A DNA stretch of 64,000 nt, taken from contig WBVU01000004.1 of NCBI GenBank assembly GCA_009192285.1, positions 2,502,001 through 2,566,000 on the forward strand, given 5' to 3'. A program made the translations under genes and the position numbers. The notes under the pieces are model-generated. The model saw only the letters and a program-made list of their open reading frames with translations. It ran no database searches and was not told the DNA's origin. Positions 25,046-60,540 of the stretch are shown here, piece by piece. The first letter of the stretch is position 1; each line of letters opens with the position of its first letter. The DNA is from Morchella semilibera (Eukaryota; Ascomycota; Pezizomycetes; Pezizales; Morchellaceae).

Positions 25046-25879
25046 TTACCTTGCCCTGGTGTCTAATGCCAACCTCTCTGCAACTTCCAAATCACACATT
25101 CCCTTCATGAGTTCTTTGAATCCCTTCAACTCATTCGCACCAGCAGTAAGACTGTCTACGTCTTGGTTACTCTGTACCCGTATACTTGCCTTCAAGATCC
25201 ATGATTTGGCCGGATCGAGCGATACTAAATCCGCCACTGGGAACGGATTTCCCAGCATCTCATCTAGTGAAGGAGTTGCTGTAGCTGGAGCTGAATTGGC
25301 CAAGGCTGGATGGTTTGGTGGGAGTAGTATCTGTGTTAACTTAATAATGACGTTATTATGTACTAGCCGAAACGACTTGGTGAAGTATGCTGCCTGGAAC
25401 CTATCAATAGTCCAATTCTATCAACATCTTTATTTGAGTGTGCCTCCCCTGCCTACAAGCAAAACTCACATGTATCCTAAACTCTCCATAAAAGCGACAG
25501 CGTCTCCCTCGCTGATGTCCGAGCTCAGAACGGCCCTATTAGTGACCGGCTGTTTCCGTATCACTTCCGGTATATCCTTCAGCGTCATTGTCCACTTCTG
25601 CTTCCGCACCTCGTAGTCATTCCCCACTGCCCCCTGTGTCTCGTCGATCCTGGAAACAAGGTGCACATAGTATAGCTCTGTACTACCGCCGCCAGGGCCG
25701 GACTGTTTTGGCCGCTTGGGTTTGAAGACAAGAGTGTGGTGTAGTGAAGTGTCGGGAAGCATGCCGGTGATGCCGGAAACAATACGGAGGATCTGGGGCT
25801 GCCTTGATGAGGGGATATGAGAGTATAAAGATAGCTCCTGATGGGAGTTTTGAAATTGGGGCTGTTGGGGGCGCGCCAT
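25046..25879 (-). CDS. MED18: Mediator complex subunit 18
   Basis: Head-module subunit of the RNA polymerase II Mediator complex (yeast Srb5). Exons are 25879-25470 and 25400-25046, separated by a 69-nt intron (GTGAGT...TAG); the product is 254 aa, a normal length. Recognisable parts are an N-terminal HQELSLYSHIP and RQPQILRIVSGITGM, the middle NRAVLSSDISEGDAVAFMESLG, and FTKSFRLVHNNVIIKLTQIL after the intron. The C-terminus is WILKASIRVQSNQDV followed by KGFKELMKGMCDLEVAERLA and LDTR. The last two blocks are the most conserved part of Med18. Confidence 0.9.
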
Positions 25880-27033
25880 AATTTGGGTGTTTTGAGGGCT
25901 GGCCTTGGGGAATAGTTTTGAATATGTAGGTATTGTTAGATGTTTGGTGTTGTGGGTGAGGCTTAAAATCGCTTAGGTTATTGGGCGCACACGCTAAGAA
26001 CTTTAAACCAACCTCAACTGAGGGCCTGCCCAACCATTGTCACACTGTCCAAGTGACTAGACGTCGCTAGCCCCTCCCCCCTCCCCCCGCACAAGTGGAT
26101 GTCACTTTTTGTATGGGGTACCAATCATTCCTTAACCATACTAACAAAATTTTACTCTTTGCCTTTGACATAGAGTTCTCAACTGCTTCCTTAACGGTCT
26201 GAAAAACCTTGTCTCTCTGTTTCGTGTCGTACTAGAGAGGAGATTTATTGATCCTATGCTAAGGTCGGCCATACTAAAACCGATGATCCACTTGATCCAG
26301 TTTTTGTCAAACCTCTTCTCGATCATCGTGACCTAACATGCGAGGCTCTTATAGTTAATTAGCATTTGTCCTAGTAAATTATAAACCACGAGTTCCCTCA
26401 ACACCTATAACCGTATTGTAAACTAATAATCCGGGACTCTTAAGTCAAAAGTCAAGGCGGAGTACAAGGTACCAAGAACTTACTGTGACACATATGAAAC
26501 ACTCTGCTCCGCCTGAAGAGTATACACCCCACACGTTATTAAGCTGCCAAATCTGACAAGTTCCGTGTTTGGCTCAATTATGTGGTTTACGCGCGAGATA
26601 TGCCCGGTGTTACTACGCCCAAGCCTAAGTGGTAGTATGTTGTTAACAATGGTATTCAACTAAGAATCGACAGTCGATTCTGAAAAACATACTTTTGAGA
26701 GCAATGGTTATGGTGTAGGGTACATTTACTCTTATTTTTGATACATGTAGATATACGAAGATCATAGGTATAAAGTATACATATATACATGTAAGCATTC
26801 AGTCCAGCTTCGTGACTACGTGTATACATACATGTATATCTCATAGCCATAAACAGTAACCATATGATTGATACTCAAACAGGGGAGAGAAGTCGGGGCA
26901 TTCGACGGAACATCTCCGGAACGCCCCGGAGTAAAAAAGGCATCAAAAACCTTGTAGAAAGAGAGGGTGGTAAAAGAGATGGTTAGAACAAAACCTGTGC
27001 AATAAAATACCCGTTTAGATTGATAGAAAGGAA
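25880..27033. other. Intergenic (Med18 promoter / SWIM-RING 3' end)
   Basis: 1.15 kb with no supported gene; contains C-rich sequence near 26075 and three TACATGTA palindromes within 95 bp (26742, 26786, 26829). Confidence 0.6.
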
Positions 27034-33029: not shown

Positions 33030-33560
33030 GATTTCATCCTTGAGATAGCTGTTTGTTTCTTTTCCTTTTTTATCTCTCCCTTCTATTCTTTCTTTTCCTT
33101 CTTCGTGTGGCTTTCCCCGGAGAGAAGATTATCTGGAAGAGGTCGATATCTAGTTACATACCATACTTTTTTTTTTTTTTTTTTTTTAGTGTTGTGTTCC
33201 TGATCGAGTAGCGTGAGCCCTGCAACGGTGTTTGAGCCTTACTCAGGAACTGCTGCCCCTTTACCTCAACACCCAGCAAGCAACGACGTTCACCACCACA
33301 AAATACACCACCGCCTTGCGGTTGTTTCTGTTACTGCTGCCATTTGTCCCCCATCTTGTTTCCCCTCGACCTACATACTTCGGAAACTTTTTCGAATGTC
33401 ATGAACGAATCCTCTTTGTTTTAATCTCCCCCTTTTCTTTAACTTCTTTTTCTTTCCTTAAACCCTGTTTGTCCCCCTCCACACGCTCCAGTCATCTCAA
33501 ACAGCCATTCACTGTACGCATCACTCCAATAATCTCTCTGATATAAAACAATACATCCAG
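33030..33560 (+). promoter_or_regulatory. Pyrimidine-rich leader/promoter of the DENN gene
   Basis: A long CT-rich tract, including a T21 run and repeated CTTTTCCTT-type stretches, runs to just upstream of the start codon at 33582. CT-rich sequence directly before transcription or translation starts is common in filamentous ascomycete genes. The precise start site cannot be read. Confidence 0.5.
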
Positions 33561-47000: not shown

Positions 47001-50000
47001 AGCTTTCAGGCTCTGGCCTGTAAGTAGGTTACTTGGCGCATAAGTATGGCCCATTCATCTCGATGTTCTCTATTTCTGACTAGAATACCCTTCTTAGGCA
47101 AAGTACATATGCTGTCTGTAATGTACTGTGTGTGTGTGTGTGTGTGTGGACTTCTTCGAACCCAGTGTTTGCGGGCCTTCTCGGAGAACTCGGTAATCTG
47201 CAGTTCTCATTCACTTTCCACCCTATGAACGGCTTCCATGATAACCCGCCAGACATGGAGTGCACAGTACCAGCCAGGGGCGTTAGAATGGTCACTACCA
47301 TTTACCACAATCCCGGCGAAGGTCCCTGAGATCTCCTCCTCCTCCTAGATAGCTCACTCTCCCAGCTACCCCCTTGAGTTCACCAGTGTCGTGAATTGTC
47401 GCGCCACGACTACTGCCGCTGCTCCTCCACACCCGGCGCGGGCTGGACATAATTTCGCATATGTCTCTTTACATCATAGAACCTAGGATGTTAAGGTTTC
47501 TTTCTTCCATCCCATCCATGGAGACAACAAAGGCCTAGCTGAAGCTTTGAAGAAGAAGAGGAGGAGGAGGAGGCTCCGTCCAGCTCGGCGGGAGTAGTTA
47601 GATGGTAGACGAGAGAGCTGGGGTGGTGGTGCATCAAAGCTAGAGTAGATGACCCTCGGCTCCCCTGATCGCGATAGATATCAATCATATCACGACAGGA
47701 TCTAGTATACTCTTTTTACATGTAACTCCTTTGTGCGTCGTTATTCATCGCCAACAACGTCTTCAATTAACAGCATATCAGCAAATAGACGCCGCCTCTC
47801 CCCTTTATTATTTCACAGATGCTATTGTTAATTTTTTTCTTTTTAGGTTTTCTTTTCCTCCTCCTCTTATCAGCGAGGGCAGACTTTGGGTGCGATACGT
47901 ATCCGGTGTCGGTGAGCTGGCCGCCTTTGTAATATCACGATGTTAGGCCTAGGTTGAAGGTTGAGGGAAGCGTCTGATATTAAGCACCACAACCATCACC
48001 ACCCACCACAACCATCACCACCTAAGCAACCTTATTGGATCGAGGTCGAGTGGGTATATATATTGTAACTGTTCGTATTTGTATAGCCCATTCAATGCGT
48101 AACGGGCTTGAAAAGGTGGCTTAAACAAGTACATATTGCAGCCCCCATCTATCCACAGGTACCACCCGCATGGCCCACCACCAAACAAATCGAGTGGATG
48201 CTAAAACCATATCCCATCTTTTACCCCTTCAGAACGCATCCTATGACTGCTTAAAAGGGTATCTACAAAGCCACCCACCTGGCTGAACAGCTTGTCATGT
48301 CACCCCATGCATGCAACCTAAGATTGGTTACTCATTTTAAAGGGGTGTGTGTGAGGAGGCTAGAGTAGATGTAAGACATGGCTCGCACTCGCGATTTAAG
48401 CCCATCATCATTCTAATTGATGACCGGTCCGCCCATGGAAGCATACATGTAGATACCACCACTCGCTTGCCTGTAAGATAACATACAAAGTACCAACTAG
48501 GGACACCCGAGAATGATTGATCGATTTATTTGGCCCGCAAACCACATTCTGCTACATACATGTACTGCCGAGTGCATGTATGTAAACTGGAAACGAGGCA
48601 TGCACACGAGAAAACCTCCCTGGGACGTATATCTTGACCGTTGTGTTAATTGGCTCTCAGTTCCCCGGTTCGTGCTGCAATGTCAATTATCAAACCTAAT
48701 ACTATACTCACCCCTTTCTTCTTCCTGATGTGATGCTGATGCTGATGCGCATTTCAACATTCGAGACACGTGTTGCGTGGGCATCACGCTATCCGCTAAC
48801 TTACGTGCCCGACTTGCCTGGTGGTTGTGGTGCCTAACCTTCGCCTATGTCCGTCCAGATGTTTCTTCAACTCGAGGAAAGGAAAAAACAAATCCCATAC
48901 CAACACCCCCCCTCCCACCCCTCCTACCCCTCCCACCCTACCCCTAGGCATAGAAATAGACCAAATAAAAATAAAAAAAAAAAAAAAAAAAAAAAAATAA
49001 GGCTCTGTCCGTCACGAGTTGTGTGTTAACGGACGTGGTGGTGGTGGTAGACCCCTCTTTCTGGCGCGAGCGAGCGAGCGTCGGTAGTGTGAGCTTGGAT
49101 CTTCTCTCGGGCATTTCCCGCTTCTTCTTCTTTCTTTGTATATAGGTACATGTAAGTGAGTGAGCAAGGGAAGAAAATGATTTGATCCTGACCCCATTAC
49201 GGGATCTCAAACACCCGCCATTTTGGTTTAGCTTTGCCTGAAACATTCGGGGGGGCTTGCTTTGCTCTAATTTACCTACATACCATATGATCCCATGTCC
49301 CAGCTTATTTTGTTTGGGCCGCCCAATTGTATATTTACTTTTTTTTCCTTCCCTTTTTTTCCTTTTTTTTTTTTCCTTTTATCGGAAAAACGTGGTGCTG
49401 GCGGCCCTGGGAAAATATCAAAATGCTTGACCTTTTTGCACTTCCACTTTTGCTGGCCGTTAATGGAAGTCGATTAAGCGTGCTCTACCGTACCCCACCA
49501 CCACCACCACCACACACGTGAACAACCTTTTCCCCTCCAAAGTGCAAAATCTAATGACCAATCTAGCAGGAACTCGGGCTTCCAGAAGAACTTGTTCGCT
49601 CGCACGTTTAACGGCAAACACGGCAGAAAAGAAGGTGTGTAAAAAAAAAAAAAAAAAGAAGAGGAAAGAAAGAAAGGGTCCGCCGCCGGCCGCGCGCACG
49701 CCGGCCAACGGCTCTTCCATTCCTTCTAGAATCCGTACGCGAGGGGAACTAGAAGGAATGGAAGGTGTCTGTTCTAGCGCCGGCGGTCGGGCTTGGCGGT
49801 GGACCCTTGGGAGAACTTTGAGGGCCCAGGGATGGATGGACCCTGATGATGTACCTACATGTATAGCGATACCTAACGATTGATTGGTTGCGCATGCCAA
49901 TGGTGCTACATGTATCGACGGTAGATGTTTGTCAACAGTGTATAATAGAGAGGGACGGTGCGAAAAAGAGAAGAAAAATTTCAAGACATGTAGGGATGCT

Positions 50001-56000: not shown

Positions 56001-57999
56001 CTCATCAAATAGAGCTAAAGGGGTCGAAGCCAGGTGTTGTAACTCTTCAAATTTTGGTGCTGCAAGCTTCCTTATATAGGTACGCCACCAATCTCGCGAC
56101 CAAGAATTAATGCAGTAGCAGCTTGTATCTGGGTCTTCCTGGTTCTGGGGTTCGCGTCCTCAACTACTTTCGGGGGGATATTCAATTGCCTTGATCTGAG
56201 CGCAATCACTATTTGCCGGAGCTCGAGATAGTCGAATGTTTCTAGCTTAAGGGCTTAAGATATATAAGGAGACCGAATAAGGTTTATACCTTGGTAGTGT
56301 ACTCATGTACCGCCACATTTCTTTCACCTGTTTTCCTCGGCTGTAGACAAATGCTGGCCGCCCTCCGCACCATAGTTAAGTTTACTCGAGTTTGATTTCC
56401 CAGTCCTGTTGGTGCTCCAACAGCTCTCCAAAGGTGGGCGTGGTGTGAGCGCTCTTTTTTTTTTTTTTTTTTTCCCCTCTTTGGGGGGGGGGGGGGATAT
56501 TCCGGTTCGCGAATTCGGCCAGGCTTCAGGTTGAGTACATACATAATGGACAGTTAAGGGTCGAGAGTGTGAGAGCGTCAAACTTGACATAAATCTGTGC
56601 GGGCGGATCATATAGACCTGTAGTCCTAAGGAATAACCGCGAGCCCCTTCATGGTAAGAATATCTCAAGATTGAAAATAGCGTTGGTGACAATGATGTGA
56701 TCTGCATACCTACGAAGAATATAACATCATGGTACTCATTAGGCACGGTAGGAGGAAACTAGAACAAAAGAGCTGGAAAGGAAGATACTTTGGCGAAGCA
56801 GCTGAGATTGGTGTTTGACACTTGTTCTGGTTTAACTATGAATGCAATCTATCAAAGGACTTTCGGGACTGGTCCAACCACGATCGCGAGTGGACTAAAT
56901 GATGTGAGCGAATATGAACTATTTCATAATGAAAAGGACTACGCTCATAGCGGTCTTCGGGTGCTCCTGATATTGATAAAAAGGCTAGGTATCTTTTGTA
57001 AGGTCCACAGGTCCTAGGGACGTGGTCTCGGCCCTCAAGATGGTCTAGCGTTGCTCAATTTTCCTTTAAAGTGGCCGTCGACAGTATTCAATGTTGGAAT
57101 TACAGGGACCGGCAAACCCGCGGGCACTGGCGGATAGACTACATGTATGTTTAGATTCGGCCGGCTGGAACGGGATGGAGAAAGCGTGAAGAAGAGTTGG
57201 GATGGGAGCAATGAGGCGTCTATGTAGTTTGTAAGCTTGGGTTACCCAGCCGTGGTAGAATCACAACTCATCACTCGCGCCAAGAAAACCCTGCTGCTTG
57301 CTCTCAGAAAGGCGGAACACTACATACATGTACATATCACTCTCTCACGGGGTGCTACAAGATGACTACAACATATTTCGTATACTTCTCTATTAGTACA
57401 CTATCCCTCCATAGATAAATTCTTTTCCCGCTATTGAAGCGCCTCGGGGCCAATTGAAAAATTTTCATTAAGCCCCATGCCAGTTGCGATTGGCCGTGAG
57501 GAAATAAGCAATAAACCGCGCGAGTTGGCCACATGCTACAATTACGCTCCAGGGGTCTGGTGAGACTATGGTTATGCAGTATACAGTCGTTAGTGAAACT
57601 CACCTCTTTACTCCGCCATCGAAGTCCGCTCTGCTGGTTGGTAGCTATAGGGAGTTTGGGTGAACGGACTAGTAACATAGGTTTAGCGTAGTTTCACGGG
57701 AATATTAAACCTATAACACTCGATTTAGGGAAATGGTCATATGGAGAAGAGCTCTGAATGGGGACTGTGTCTAGGGGCTTTCCTCGCTCGCCTCTACCAG
57801 TTAAGGACGTGGTTTTCCCGCAATTTAGACAGCCATAACTAATTATAACTTACACGCACAAGAGCCATTCTCGGGGAAAAAAAAAACTTACTCCAGCTGG
57901 GTAACTGTTGTAGGGTTAGCACCTTGGCTATAGCCACCTCTGAGAAGCTGCAAGGTCGGCGAAAAAAATTGGTTTTAGTCCTAAGAAGATTTAAACGGC
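53001..57999. other. Gene desert, part 3
   Basis: No gene supported over 5 kb. It contains a 12-bp GC palindrome GGCGGGCCCGCC (53428-53439), TACATGTA at 54258, 54492, 57140 and 57325, CCGAGTGAT-type motifs at 54694 and 55722, and a T-run/G-run pair near 56457-56495. An open frame at 55292-55669 opens with GTG and has an internal ATG at about 55337, but no family signal. Confidence 0.5.
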
Positions 58000-58037
58000 C
58001 AAAAAAAAAAAGGGTCTTGGCGGTTCCTCCTACCAGC

Positions 58038-58045
58038 TATATAAA
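58038..58045 (+). promoter_or_regulatory. TATA-like element upstream of hairpin array
   Basis: TATATAAA followed by C/T-rich sequence lies about 220 bp before the first hairpin. It is the kind of element that could start a plus-strand transcript through the array. This is inference only. Confidence 0.3.
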
Positions 58046-58261
58046 CCCCTCACTCCCACTCCCTCTTCTCTCCCCCAAGCAGCAGACAGCTTCTGGCCTC
58101 ACCGGGCTAGAACCTGTCTGCATACCCCCCCTTGACTCCCTCTCCTCAAATTCTGAGAGGGAAATAGAAGCGGGGGGTAGCAAAAAGTGGTAGGGATAGT
58201 CCCCACTCACTCGCTCTGGCATTGTTGCCATAGAGGAGTTGAGGGGCTATCCTGGCCACTG

Positions 58262-58801
58262 TCTCCCCTGGCTGCTGCTGTCAGGGGGGCGTAAAAAAGC
58301 CCCTCTTGGGCTCTGAGCGAAATGCTTAGAGTTCCGAGCGGGGCTTTTTTGCGTTAGGTCTCCCTGACTATTGTCGGGGAGACTAGCGTGATCAAAGGCC
58401 TCTCCTGGTCCTTGGGCTTTGGCCTGAGGATCAGGGGGGGCCTTTTTTGCGTTAGGTCCCCCTGACTATTGTTGGGGGGACTAGCGTGAGGAAAGGCCTC
58501 TCCTGGTCCTTGGGCTTCGGCCTGAGGGTCAGGGGGGGCCTTTTTTGCGTTAGGTTAGCTGTTTCCCCACCGTTCCTCTTTGCTGTGTAGAAAGGCCTCT
58601 CTTGGTCCTTGGGCTTTGGCCCGAGGATTGAGAGAGGCCTTTTTTGCGTTAGGTGATTAGTTTTCTTGTAGCCCCTCTTTGTTTTATAGAAAGGCCTCTC
58701 TTGGTTCTTGGTCTTTGGCCCGAGGACCGAGGGGGGCCTCTTTTGCGTTGGGTCGCGGTCCCTATTGGTTCTTGGGCGCTGTCCGAGGAATCGAGAGGGG
58801 A
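58262..58801 (+). repeat. Tandem array of ~99-bp hairpin-forming units
   Basis: Units repeat every 98-101 bp. Long type-1 hairpins are at 58293-58350, 58394-58448, 58492-58546, 58591-58645 and 58690-58744, with a degenerate sixth at about 58758-58801. Copies two to five have a stem of about 24 bp starting AAAGGCC. Most copies end in six T, followed by GCGTTAGGT. A shorter type-2 hairpin (10-11 bp, core GTCYCCCTGAC) lies at 58262-58289, 58358-58384 and 58456-58481, that is before the first, second and third long hairpins. Differences between copies are mostly paired: a C-G pair in one stem is T-A in another, and G-C becomes G-T. No protein is convincingly encoded. It may be a structured non-coding RNA, a small-RNA hairpin locus or an expanding palindromic repeat. 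Confidence 0.85.
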
Positions 58802-58852
58802 TTTTAGGAGCTCTAGATCTGGCCGTAATGTGTATGCAATACTTTGTCACTG

Positions 58853-58868
58853 CCACTGTAGCTTAGTG
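58853..58868 (+). other. tRNA-like A-box (possible tRNA-derived remnant)
   Basis: TAGCTTAGTGGTATG resembles a pol III A-box as found in tRNA D-arms. No proper B-box or cloverleaf follows, so this is at best a decayed tRNA or SINE head just downstream of the hairpin array. Confidence 0.2.
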
Positions 58869-58949
58869 GTATGGGAAAACATTGTACGGGATATGGCAGG
58901 TCGGAAGTGTGCAGATTCTTGTGGGGGGCAGGGATGGAAGGAGTAGTTC

Positions 58950-59749
58950 TCTGATCGAGATTTTATTTTATTTTTATTTATTCTATTCTCCGAGTTGAGT
59001 ATTGGAATCATTTAAGGTGGAAGAGGTGCCCGAGCCTTTTTCCTAGTAAAGAACTAAGGTGGCCCATAGCTTGGGATAGAGCGCATGTATCTGTATATAT
59101 ATATAGGGCTACCTCTCCATCGGGAAAAACTGTATAGGTTCTGCAATTCCTGTTTGGTTGGTTGAAAGCTGGTAGCAGTTGGAAGAGCTAGCCCTCCGTG
59201 ATAGAAGATTAATTAGACGGTGGACTTAACTGAGGTTAGCTTGGAGGCTGCTCCTAGCGAGGGTTTGTAGGTCCTTGGTTGTGGGGATAACCTACGACTG
59301 CGAAGACGCTCTAATATATACACATCTGCAGCTGTTTAGTTATCATTAGCCCAGGGACCATAGATGTGACTCTTTAATTTTGACGCATTAGCTATATGTG
59401 AGTTTATAGACCGAGCGGCAACTTTGTAACAGTTCAAGTCCGTACTCGGCTTAGACCAACCCACAACCCACAACCCACAACCCACAACCCACAACCCATA
59501 AAATTGACCTAATCACCACTCATCACTCGGCCCTGCGTCTATCTCGCAAGCGCGGACTGGCTTGGCTGTGTTACTAAACTAGGGGCGGCTCCCAATTCCC
59601 AACAATGCCAAGCCATTACTACCCCAGTCGTTGCCACGTCCCAGTTAAAGAGTTCCGACCAGATCAACCTTTTTGAGAATAGGATATTCAACTGCGAGAG
59701 AGCTGCCATTTCTTCAACCTTCCTATCATACCCCTCTCTTCAAGCTTCG
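58950..59749. other. Intergenic, GET1 promoter
   Basis: About 800 bp with no supported gene before GET1. It contains a short tandem heptamer (CCACAAC, five copies plus partial, 59457-59497) and a CCGAGTGAT-type motif (59522-59530) directly after it. Confidence 0.6.
59457..59497. repeat. Heptanucleotide tandem repeat (CCACAAC)n
   Basis: Five perfect tandem copies of CCACAAC with partial flanking units, about 255 bp upstream of the GET1 start codon. Confidence 0.9.
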
Positions 59750-60540
59750 ATGGTTTCGCTCTTGGTGCTTGTCGTCGTGTTGACGGTGGTGACGCATGTG
59801 GTGAATACGCTGGGTGCTCAGCAGATTGATAATCTGGTACGTATACTGCGCAGACAGGTATAGTGGTTATGATGGAAAAGCTAATTGATTGCCCTGTGTG
59901 TATGGCAGCTGTGGTCGTTCTACAACTCCCTCCCTTTCAGCGCATCCAGGAACGATGTCGCAAAGAGGCGTACCCTCCAGCGCGAGATCGTAACGCTCCG
60001 CGCCCAGCAGCGGGCCACAAGCTCCCAGGACGAGTTTGCAAAATGGGCAAAGCTACAGCGCACCCTCGACAAGAAGAGTGTAGAGCTCGAGAAGCTGAGT
60101 AAGTTTTTATTCTTTGTCGATGTGGGATTTATAGTGGTAAATACTGATTGGGTGGTGGTTGTGGTTTAGACGCCTCGATCTCGACGGCGCGTGTTTCGTT
60201 CGACGCAAAGACCAAGGCGGTGCGATGGACGCTTACCTCCGGGCTGAGGTGGTTTGTGCTCTTCTGGTACAACAAGGAACCGATGTTCTGGATGCCCGAG
60301 GGGTGGGTACCGGGCTATGTTGAGTGGGGGCTATCGTTCCCTAAGGCGCCCATCGGGAGTGTCTCGATCCAGGTGTGGAGCTTTGCCGTCGGGCAGGTGG
60401 TGAGCCTGATTGCGGGAATTGTGATGGATTGCTCTGCAGCGTTTGGAAGGACCCCAGTTGCGATGCCGGCGACGGCGGTAGTAGGCGAGGAGAGGACGAA
60501 AAAAAACCATGTAAAAGAGCATGATAGGCTTGAGTTATGA
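59750..60540 (+). CDS. GET1: Get1/WRB, receptor subunit for tail-anchored protein insertion
   Basis: Endoplasmic-reticulum membrane receptor subunit of the GET pathway; it takes Get3-bound tail-anchored proteins for insertion. Exons are 59750-59836, 59909-60098 and 60170-60540 (215 aa). The hydrophobic N-terminus MVSLLVLVVVLTVVTHVVNT is transmembrane helix 1. A cytosolic coiled coil follows (RTLQREIVTLRAQQRATSS, then EFAKWAKLQRTLDKKSVELE), which is the Get3-binding arm. The exit from the coil is typical: TKAVRWTLTSGLRWFVLFWY with PMFWMPEGWVPGYVEWGLSF. A last hydrophobic segment around VVSLIAGIVMDC ends the membrane part. Length and order match fungal Get1. Intron donors are GTACGT and GTAAGT. 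Confidence 0.94.

What the first reader, a model, noticed from the sequence alone, without database searches (positions are those of the whole stretch)
58262..58801. Tandem array of long hairpins with compensatory stem changes
Five to six units of about 99 bp each fold into a near-continuous 24-bp stem followed by a T-run and GCGTTAGGT, with a second small hairpin alternating in the first units. Between copies, stem substitutions occur in pairs: C-G to T-A, T-G to T-A, G-C to G-T in the long hairpin, and T-A to C-G in the small one. This suggests pressure to keep the fold, or arm-to-arm gene conversion. No protein explains it. A small-RNA (milRNA/siRNA) hairpin locus, a structured ncRNA or a new palindromic repeat family are all open.
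Basis: partly seen in the sequence, partly recalled or inferred. Interest (0 to 1): 0.82.

Follow-up and report, generated by a model that had tools for sequence, protein, structure and literature searches.

The report
Twelve-hairpin RNA gene in a fungus
A stretch of about 720 bases in what looks like a fungal genome would make an RNA that folds into a dozen hairpins in a row, several being repeats of one another, and the pattern of base changes suggests that the folded RNA is being preserved, perhaps as a source of gene-silencing small RNAs.

Summary
The array is real: five copies 98-99 bp apart (u1 diverged, u2-u5 close) of a hairpin followed by TTTTTTGCGTTAGGT (altered in u5), plus a degenerate u6 64 bp on. 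Small hairpins follow u1 and u2. Together 12 hairpins cover 571 of 722 nt. Classic compensation is thin: one two-sided change in the long stem, one in the small stem. Better evidence is wobble polarity: an unbiased palindrome scan finds G.T against A.C oppositions at 26:1 here, 49:70 elsewhere in the window; 22 of the 26 lie in the related copies u2-u5, but with those columns counted once it is still 13:1. That points to selection on the + strand folded as RNA (or single-stranded DNA). Late spacers diverge more than hairpins; the 5' arm varies less than the 3' arm, borderline. Best reading: a non-coding hairpin-RNA gene whose repeated stems feed Dicer, like Drosophila tandem hpRNA or fungal milRNA loci. 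Dicing, transcription and conservation could not be tested here.

The parts
58038..58045 (+). TATATAAA box, putative core promoter; one of 3 exact TATATAAA on the + strand in 64 kb (a looser TATA consensus has 30 matches)
   Evidence: the promoter role is inferred
58046..58081 (+). CT-rich stretch ending near CCCCCAAG, putative transcription start zone
   Evidence: read from the sequence; resemblance to fungal start regions is recalled, not tested (a literature search for it returned nothing)
58082..58121 (+). hairpin hA
   Evidence: -28.5 kcal/mol, z -6.6, 0 of 200 shuffles as good
58123..58179 (+). hairpin hB
   Evidence: -31.2 kcal/mol, z -5.1, 0 of 200
58190..58256 (+). hairpin hC (the coverage count used 58192-58253)
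   Evidence: -35.6 kcal/mol, z -4.4, 1 of 200
58261..58290 (+). hairpin hD
   Evidence: -19.2 kcal/mol, z -3.5, 0 of 200
58288..58355 (+). unit 1 hairpin (diverged copy; its T6GCG is paired with an upstream CGTAAAAAAG)
   Evidence: -47.5 kcal/mol, z -7.9, 0 of 200
58357..58384 (+). small hairpin s1
   Evidence: -22.9 kcal/mol, z -6.1, 0 of 200
58394..58445 (+). unit 2 long hairpin, 24 bp, loop TTTG
58446..58457 (+). conserved tail TTTGCGTTAGGT of unit 2 (end of the T6 run plus GCGTTAGGT); the same 12 nt stand at 58348, 58544 and 58643, and a changed form at 58742
58455..58482 (+). small hairpin s2
   Evidence: -22.2 kcal/mol, z -4.8, 0 of 200
58492..58543 (+). unit 3 long hairpin, 24 bp, loop TTCG
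58589..58644 (+). unit 4 long hairpin
58688..58743 (+). unit 5 long hairpin, two broken pairs
58757..58803 (+). degenerate unit 6 hairpin
   Evidence: 70% identity to unit 5 over 44 nt; z -1.34, 18 of 200 shuffles as good, not significant

Best explanation
An RNA gene on the + strand. Transcription starts near 58070-58080 downstream of the TATA box and gives a non-coding transcript of about 730 nt that folds into about 12 hairpins. The repeated 24-bp stems u2-u5, with the diverged u1, are cut by a Dicer-type enzyme into small RNAs of about 21-24 nt. The less variable 5' arm (GGCCTCTCYTGGTCCTTGGGC at 58397, 58495 and 58594) is the likely guide and the 3' arm the passenger, so several hairpins would deliver nearly one and the same small RNA. 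Supported by sequence: the fold, the strand polarity, slower change of hairpins than of the late spacers, and lack of a detected coding signal. Inferred only: transcription, the polymerase, Dicer cutting, guide choice and targets.
For: Of 12 hairpins in a row, 11 are matched by at most 1 of 200 shuffles each, covering 571 of 722 nt. 70-nt windows (each strand counted, overlapping) with z of -5 or less: 13 of 100 inside (11 +, 2 -) against 4 of 8424 outside. Unbiased palindrome scan: G.T 26, A.C 1 in 8 palindromes inside, 49:70 in 48 outside, Fisher 4.5e-8 on non-independent pairs; with the u2-u5 columns counted once 13:1, Fisher 2.8e-4. Over the 12 stems chosen from folds: 201 Watson-Crick, 37 G.T, 2 A.C, 9 other; related copies collapsed and u6 left out, 19:2, p 1.1e-4 at 50:50, 3.0e-4 at the 0.53 G+T of the downstream flank, 0.013 at two to one. 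Flanks have G+T of 0.50 and 0.53. + strand fold -451.0, - strand -328.5 kcal/mol, largely the same fact again. Hairpins u3/u4 and u4/u5 are 43/52 and 45/52 identical, the spacers after u3 and u4 20/35. Variable columns in u2-u5: 5' arm 3 of 24, 3' arm 9 of 24, p 0.09; u2-u4 1 against 7, p 0.048; u3-u5 3 against 9, p 0.09. One ATG between 58060 and 58810; no Pfam hit at E 0.1 or better in the stop-free frames of 80 aa or more over the array (58455-58862 -, 58653-58943 +) and its promoter side (57849-58190 +). In Neurospora, milR-1 to -4 share a T stretch just downstream of the milRNA and milR-1 has two putative TATA-like elements (PMC3547838, passages).
Against: No RNA evidence and no relative was available. 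Covariation among the copies does not exceed shuffles. 22 of the 26 G.T pairs of the scan lie in four related copies. The arm asymmetry is borderline and was tested on three groupings. The two early spacers, themselves hairpins, are 29/34 identical, about as alike as the hairpins. Loops of 4 nt are short for a Dicer substrate (recalled). If Pol III makes the RNA, the T6 after u1 (58345) could stop it before u2-u5. Upstream hairpins hA-hD alone show G.T 3, A.C 1. No antisense site with 5 or fewer mismatches to the one 21-nt 5'-arm sequence tested (from u2) lies outside the array in the window.
Confidence: 0.5

Rival explanations
1. A structured non-coding RNA that works as a whole molecule (protein scaffold, sponge or stability element) and is not diced. 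The hairpin + U6 + GCGUUAGGU module is a repeated binding unit.
For: The T6GCGTTAGGT tail is identical in u1-u4 although u1 is only 65% like u2 over 78 nt that include the tail; the loops of u2-u4 are UUUG or UUCG tetraloops closed by C-G; hairpins hA-hD, which no repeat search linked to the units, sit in the same presumed transcript.
Against: No Rfam family reaches its gathering score; tandem copies with nearly the same arm look more like a repeated small-RNA source (inference).
Confidence: 0.27
2. A young tandem palindromic satellite without RNA function; copies are kept alike by unequal crossing-over and gene conversion.
For: Tandem period of 98-99 bp, decay towards the distal end (u5, u6), no excess covariation, the u1-u2 and u2-u3 spacers as alike as the hairpins.
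Against: G.T over A.C polarity, also with related copies collapsed; hairpins upstream show strong folds too; the late spacers diverge more than the hairpins; no copy elsewhere in the window.
Confidence: 0.14
3. Short independent Pol III units: each early hairpin ends in T6, as Neurospora milR-1 to -4 have a T stretch, and each repeat carries its own promoter. This is a variant of the small-RNA reading, so its odds overlap with those of the best explanation.
For: T6 follows u1-u4; no TTTT between 58050 and the first T6 at 58345; non-conventional Pol III promoter with TATA-like elements and a T stretch at Neurospora milR-1 (PMC3547838, passages).
Against: Two kinds of spacer, one after u1 and u2, another after u3 and u4, with little in common (9 to 12 matches in alignments of 40-52 columns), so no shared promoter is evident there; no A/B-box scan was run.
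Confidence: 0.12
4. Selection on a single-stranded DNA hairpin of one strand (replication or transposition), or a MITE-like element; G.T is tolerated in DNA hairpins too (recalled).
For: The wobble test cannot tell RNA from ssDNA.
Against: No target-site duplication seen around unit 2, the one unit looked at by eye; the stretch sits behind a TATA box; no other copy in the window.
Confidence: 0.05

Closest known systems
Drosophila tandem hpRNA cluster hp-CG4068 (PMC10317233, passages read)
   Same: Tandem hairpins produced from a common transcript; copy number drifts (20 copies in D. melanogaster, 9 in D. simulans, 14 and 10 in two sister species); small RNAs lost in dcr-2 mutants.
   Different: Animal; 9 to 20 copies against 5 to 6 here; dicing shown there, not here; no T6GCGTTAGGT-like module or second set of hairpins is described in the passages read; no sequence comparison was made.
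Neurospora crassa milR-1 to milR-4 (PMC3547838, passages read)
   Same: Fungal source of small RNAs; T stretch right downstream; two putative TATA-like elements at milR-1.
   Different: Not described as tandem arrays in the passages read; no sequence comparison was made.
Fungal mi/milRNA hairpins as re-assessed by Johnson et al. 2022 (PMC9757828; abstract, section 11 and a term search)
   Same: Short hairpins with a small distance between duplex arms.
   Different: The words tandem, polycistronic and cluster do not occur in the main text, so a tandem multi-hairpin locus is not discussed under those words.

Membership tests
Fungal milRNA / hairpin-siRNA locus | Stem-loop long enough for a duplex of about 20-24 nt | tested here: met
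   24-26 bp stems in u2-u5 (u5 with two broken pairs), -37.3 to -48 kcal/mol
Fungal milRNA / hairpin-siRNA locus | Intergenic, non-coding, not a known structural RNA | tested here: inconclusive
   No Rfam family at gathering; no Pfam hit in the three overlapping or adjoining stop-free frames scanned. Not every frame around was scanned, and an intron or UTR of an undetected gene is not excluded. Nearest downstream frame with a Pfam hit among those scanned: CHD5-like, 60148-60537
Fungal milRNA / hairpin-siRNA locus | Discrete small-RNA reads, Dicer or Argonaute dependent | not testable with these tools
   No RNA data
Fungal milRNA / hairpin-siRNA locus | Hairpin conserved in related species | not testable with these tools
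   No genome held for the window; viral collection 0 matches; prokaryote collection 10 single matches against about 7.5 expected by my own arithmetic at equal base frequencies
Tandem hpRNA cluster (hp-CG4068 type) | Several near-identical hairpins in tandem on one strand | tested here: met
   u2-u5 42-50 of 52 identical
Tandem hpRNA cluster (hp-CG4068 type) | One common primary transcript | not testable with these tools
   TATA box at 58038 is suggestive only
Known Rfam family | Covariance-model score at or above gathering | tested here: not met
   0 matches in 64 kb; in 57900-59000, 21 matches with E up to 5, each below its gathering score, 14 of them to miRNA-precursor families; best MIR8670, E 0.00075, 31.7 of 150 bits
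MITE / dispersed palindromic repeat | Dispersed copies with target-site duplications | tested here: inconclusive
   No dispersed copy in 64 kb; the rest of the genome is not held

The most novel reading that the evidence does not exclude
A new class of fungal RNA gene: a dedicated multi-hairpin transcript that combines a run of unlike hairpins with a tandem array of hairpin-U6-GCGUUAGGU modules, each module being a repeated processing or binding unit, so that one transcript delivers several copies of one small RNA.
Probability: 0.3. Interest if true: 0.75.

Novelty: new variant of a known kind. Interest (0 to 1): 0.56.

Why it matters
If diced, this would be a tandem, multi-hairpin small-RNA gene in a fungus, comparable to insect hpRNA clusters. 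In the listings seen here (searches; titles and abstract beginnings, 12 of 17 papers shown) no paper was evidently about such a fungal locus; most subscription papers are not in that library. The repeated units offer an internal test of guide against passenger strand, and the conserved U6-GCGUUAGGU tail is a concrete element to test for termination or processing. The wobble-polarity count is also a way to look for RNA-level selection in a single genome without any relative.

Tried and rejected
Covariation as proof of structure: one two-sided change in the long stem and no excess over shuffles with four copies. Rfam: nothing at gathering; 21 sub-threshold matches set aside as chance or generic hairpin matches. 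tRNA genes: none found. Protein coding: no Pfam hit in the stop-free frames of 80 aa or more over the array. Dispersed repeat: blastn of the array against the window at E up to 1 finds only itself and a 13-bp match at 33411. Relatives: exact 19-mer in IMG/VR 0; degenerate 19-mer in GTDB genomes 10 single matches, titles bacterial, about what chance gives, not followed. Targets in the window (one 21-mer per arm, from u2): none for the 5' arm beyond the array; one site with 5 mismatches for the 3' arm at 25784. Literature: searches returned no paper; one listed one and 45 two, none evidently on this locus or on a truffle hairpin cluster from title and abstract beginning.

Organism: read as an ascomycete from Nop58 and from S24e, DENN, Tcp11, CHD5-like and pyridine-nucleotide oxidoreductase frames; the lineage is an inference from recalled knowledge and the species is not identified. 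A guess of Pezizomycetes guided two literature searches and was not tested.

Full report
What is there. The tandem array at 58296-58803 is real. Copies start at 58296, 58394, 58492, 58591 and 58690, with a degenerate sixth at about 58757 (TRF agrees). Units u2-u4 form 24-bp stems with loops TTTG or TTCG; u5 has two broken pairs and a larger loop. A T-run and GCGTTAGGT follow, identical in u1-u4 and changed at two positions in u5. u1 is diverged (65% to u2 over 78 nt) but has the same tail and spacing. Small hairpins s1 and s2 follow u1 and u2; the spacers after u3 and u4 are unlike them and unstructured.

Folding the surroundings shows four more hairpins, hA 58082-58121, hB 58123-58179, hC 58190-58256 and hD 58261-58290, each matched by at most 1 of 200 shuffles; 58068-58300 as a whole has z -7.6. 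The first starts 44 bp after the start of a TATATAAA box at 58038 (3 exact copies on the + strand in 64 kb, though a looser TATA consensus has 30), behind a CT-rich stretch. The feature is therefore better seen as one element of about 720 nt with 12 hairpins covering 571 of 722 nt; 11 of the 12 are significant one by one, u6 is not. In 70-nt windows at 15-nt steps over the 64 kb, both strands, z of -5 or lower occurs in 13 of 100 inside the element and in 4 of 8424 outside (only windows at -18 kcal/mol or lower were given a z).

Is the fold selected? The claim of paired compensatory changes is weak. Among u2-u5, 13 of 24 pairs never vary, one changes on both sides, eight change on one side and stay paired through G.U, and two break, both in u5. 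The covariation measures do not exceed shuffles, and four copies give little power. A different test is informative. A transition in a palindrome makes a G.T or an A.C opposition about equally often if only duplex DNA matters; if the + strand is read as RNA, G.U is tolerated and A.C is not. With a score that treats both alike, the 12 stems hold 37 G.T, 2 A.C and 9 other oppositions. Because those stems were chosen from + strand folds, I repeated the count with an unbiased palindrome scan of the whole window: 23:1 inside (5 palindromes) against 12:14 outside (6) at the strict cut-off, and 26:1 (8) against 49:70 (48) at the loosest (Fisher 1.3e-4 and 4.5e-8). Tandem copies are not independent: 22 of the 26 lie in u2-u5. 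With the u2-u5 columns counted once the scan still gives 13:1, Fisher 2.8e-4 against the outside. The collapsed count over all hairpins but u6 is 19:2, p 1.1e-4 under 50:50, 3.0e-4 under 0.53, 0.0024 under 60:40 and 0.013 under two to one. Flanking G+T is 0.50 and 0.53, so regional skew is small. The signal rests on the array and small hairpins; hA-hD give only 3:1.

Further pattern. Hairpins are 42-50/52 identical among u2-u5, the tail 11-12/12, but the two late spacers only 20/35; the two early spacers, themselves hairpins, are 29/34. The 5' arm varies at 3 of 24 columns and the 3' arm at 9 of 24 (p 0.09; 1 against 7 and p 0.048 for u2-u4, the lowest of three groupings). That is what a guide/passenger pair would look like, but it is borderline. 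u2 and u3 can also pair arm-to-arm into one long duplex (-122.9 kcal/mol; also in the fold), a possible siRNA-type substrate.

What it is not. No Rfam match at gathering; 21 sub-threshold matches, 14 of them to miRNA-precursor families, the best at 31.7 of the 150 bits required; no tRNA; no Pfam domain in the stop-free frames scanned over it; one ATG in 58060-58810; no second copy in the window. The surrounding DNA carries fungus-like nuclear genes: Nop58, ribosomal S24e, DENN and Tcp11 domains, a CHD5-like frame at 60148-60537 and a pyridine-nucleotide oxidoreductase (glutathione reductase by recall) from 61545 on.

Mechanism. I read it as a hairpin-RNA gene feeding an RNAi pathway (0.5), with an undiced structured RNA as chief rival (0.27). 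Drosophila hp-CG4068 is the closest working analogue: tandem hairpins from a common transcript with variable copy number and small RNAs lost in dcr-2 mutants (PMC10317233, passages). Neurospora milR-1 to -4 share the downstream T stretch, and milR-1 has TATA-like elements (PMC3547838, passages). The T6 after the early units leaves the polymerase open: a Pol III transcript could end at 58345-58350, whereas the wobble polarity in u2-u5 argues that those units are transcribed too. The GCGTTAGGT tail has no explanation yet.

Limits. No genome is held for the window, and the collections searched are of viruses and prokaryotes, so conservation, copy number elsewhere and expression are untested.

Noticed in passing
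49714-49764: A separate single hairpin (18 Watson-Crick pairs, 1 G.T, no A.C, 2 other), lying in the only 70-nt window outside the element with z below -6; a candidate lone milRNA-like hairpin. Its sequence was read; a fold of it failed with the call (43) and was not repeated.
   Followed up: partly
58345-58359 and repeats: The tail T6GCGTTAGGT is more constant than the hairpin before it and the late spacers after it; no function assigned.
   Followed up: partly
58288-58355: In unit 1 the T6GCG is paired with an upstream CGTAAAAAAG, so it is double-stranded there, while in u2-u5 GCG is largely unpaired in the single-unit folds.
   Followed up: no
26762-26852: AT-rich imperfect palindrome with 3 G.T and 8 A.C oppositions, if anything the opposite polarity.
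   Followed up: no
1422-1478 and 59457-59498: Perfect microsatellites: 19 copies of TAG and 6 copies of CAACCCA.
   Followed up: no
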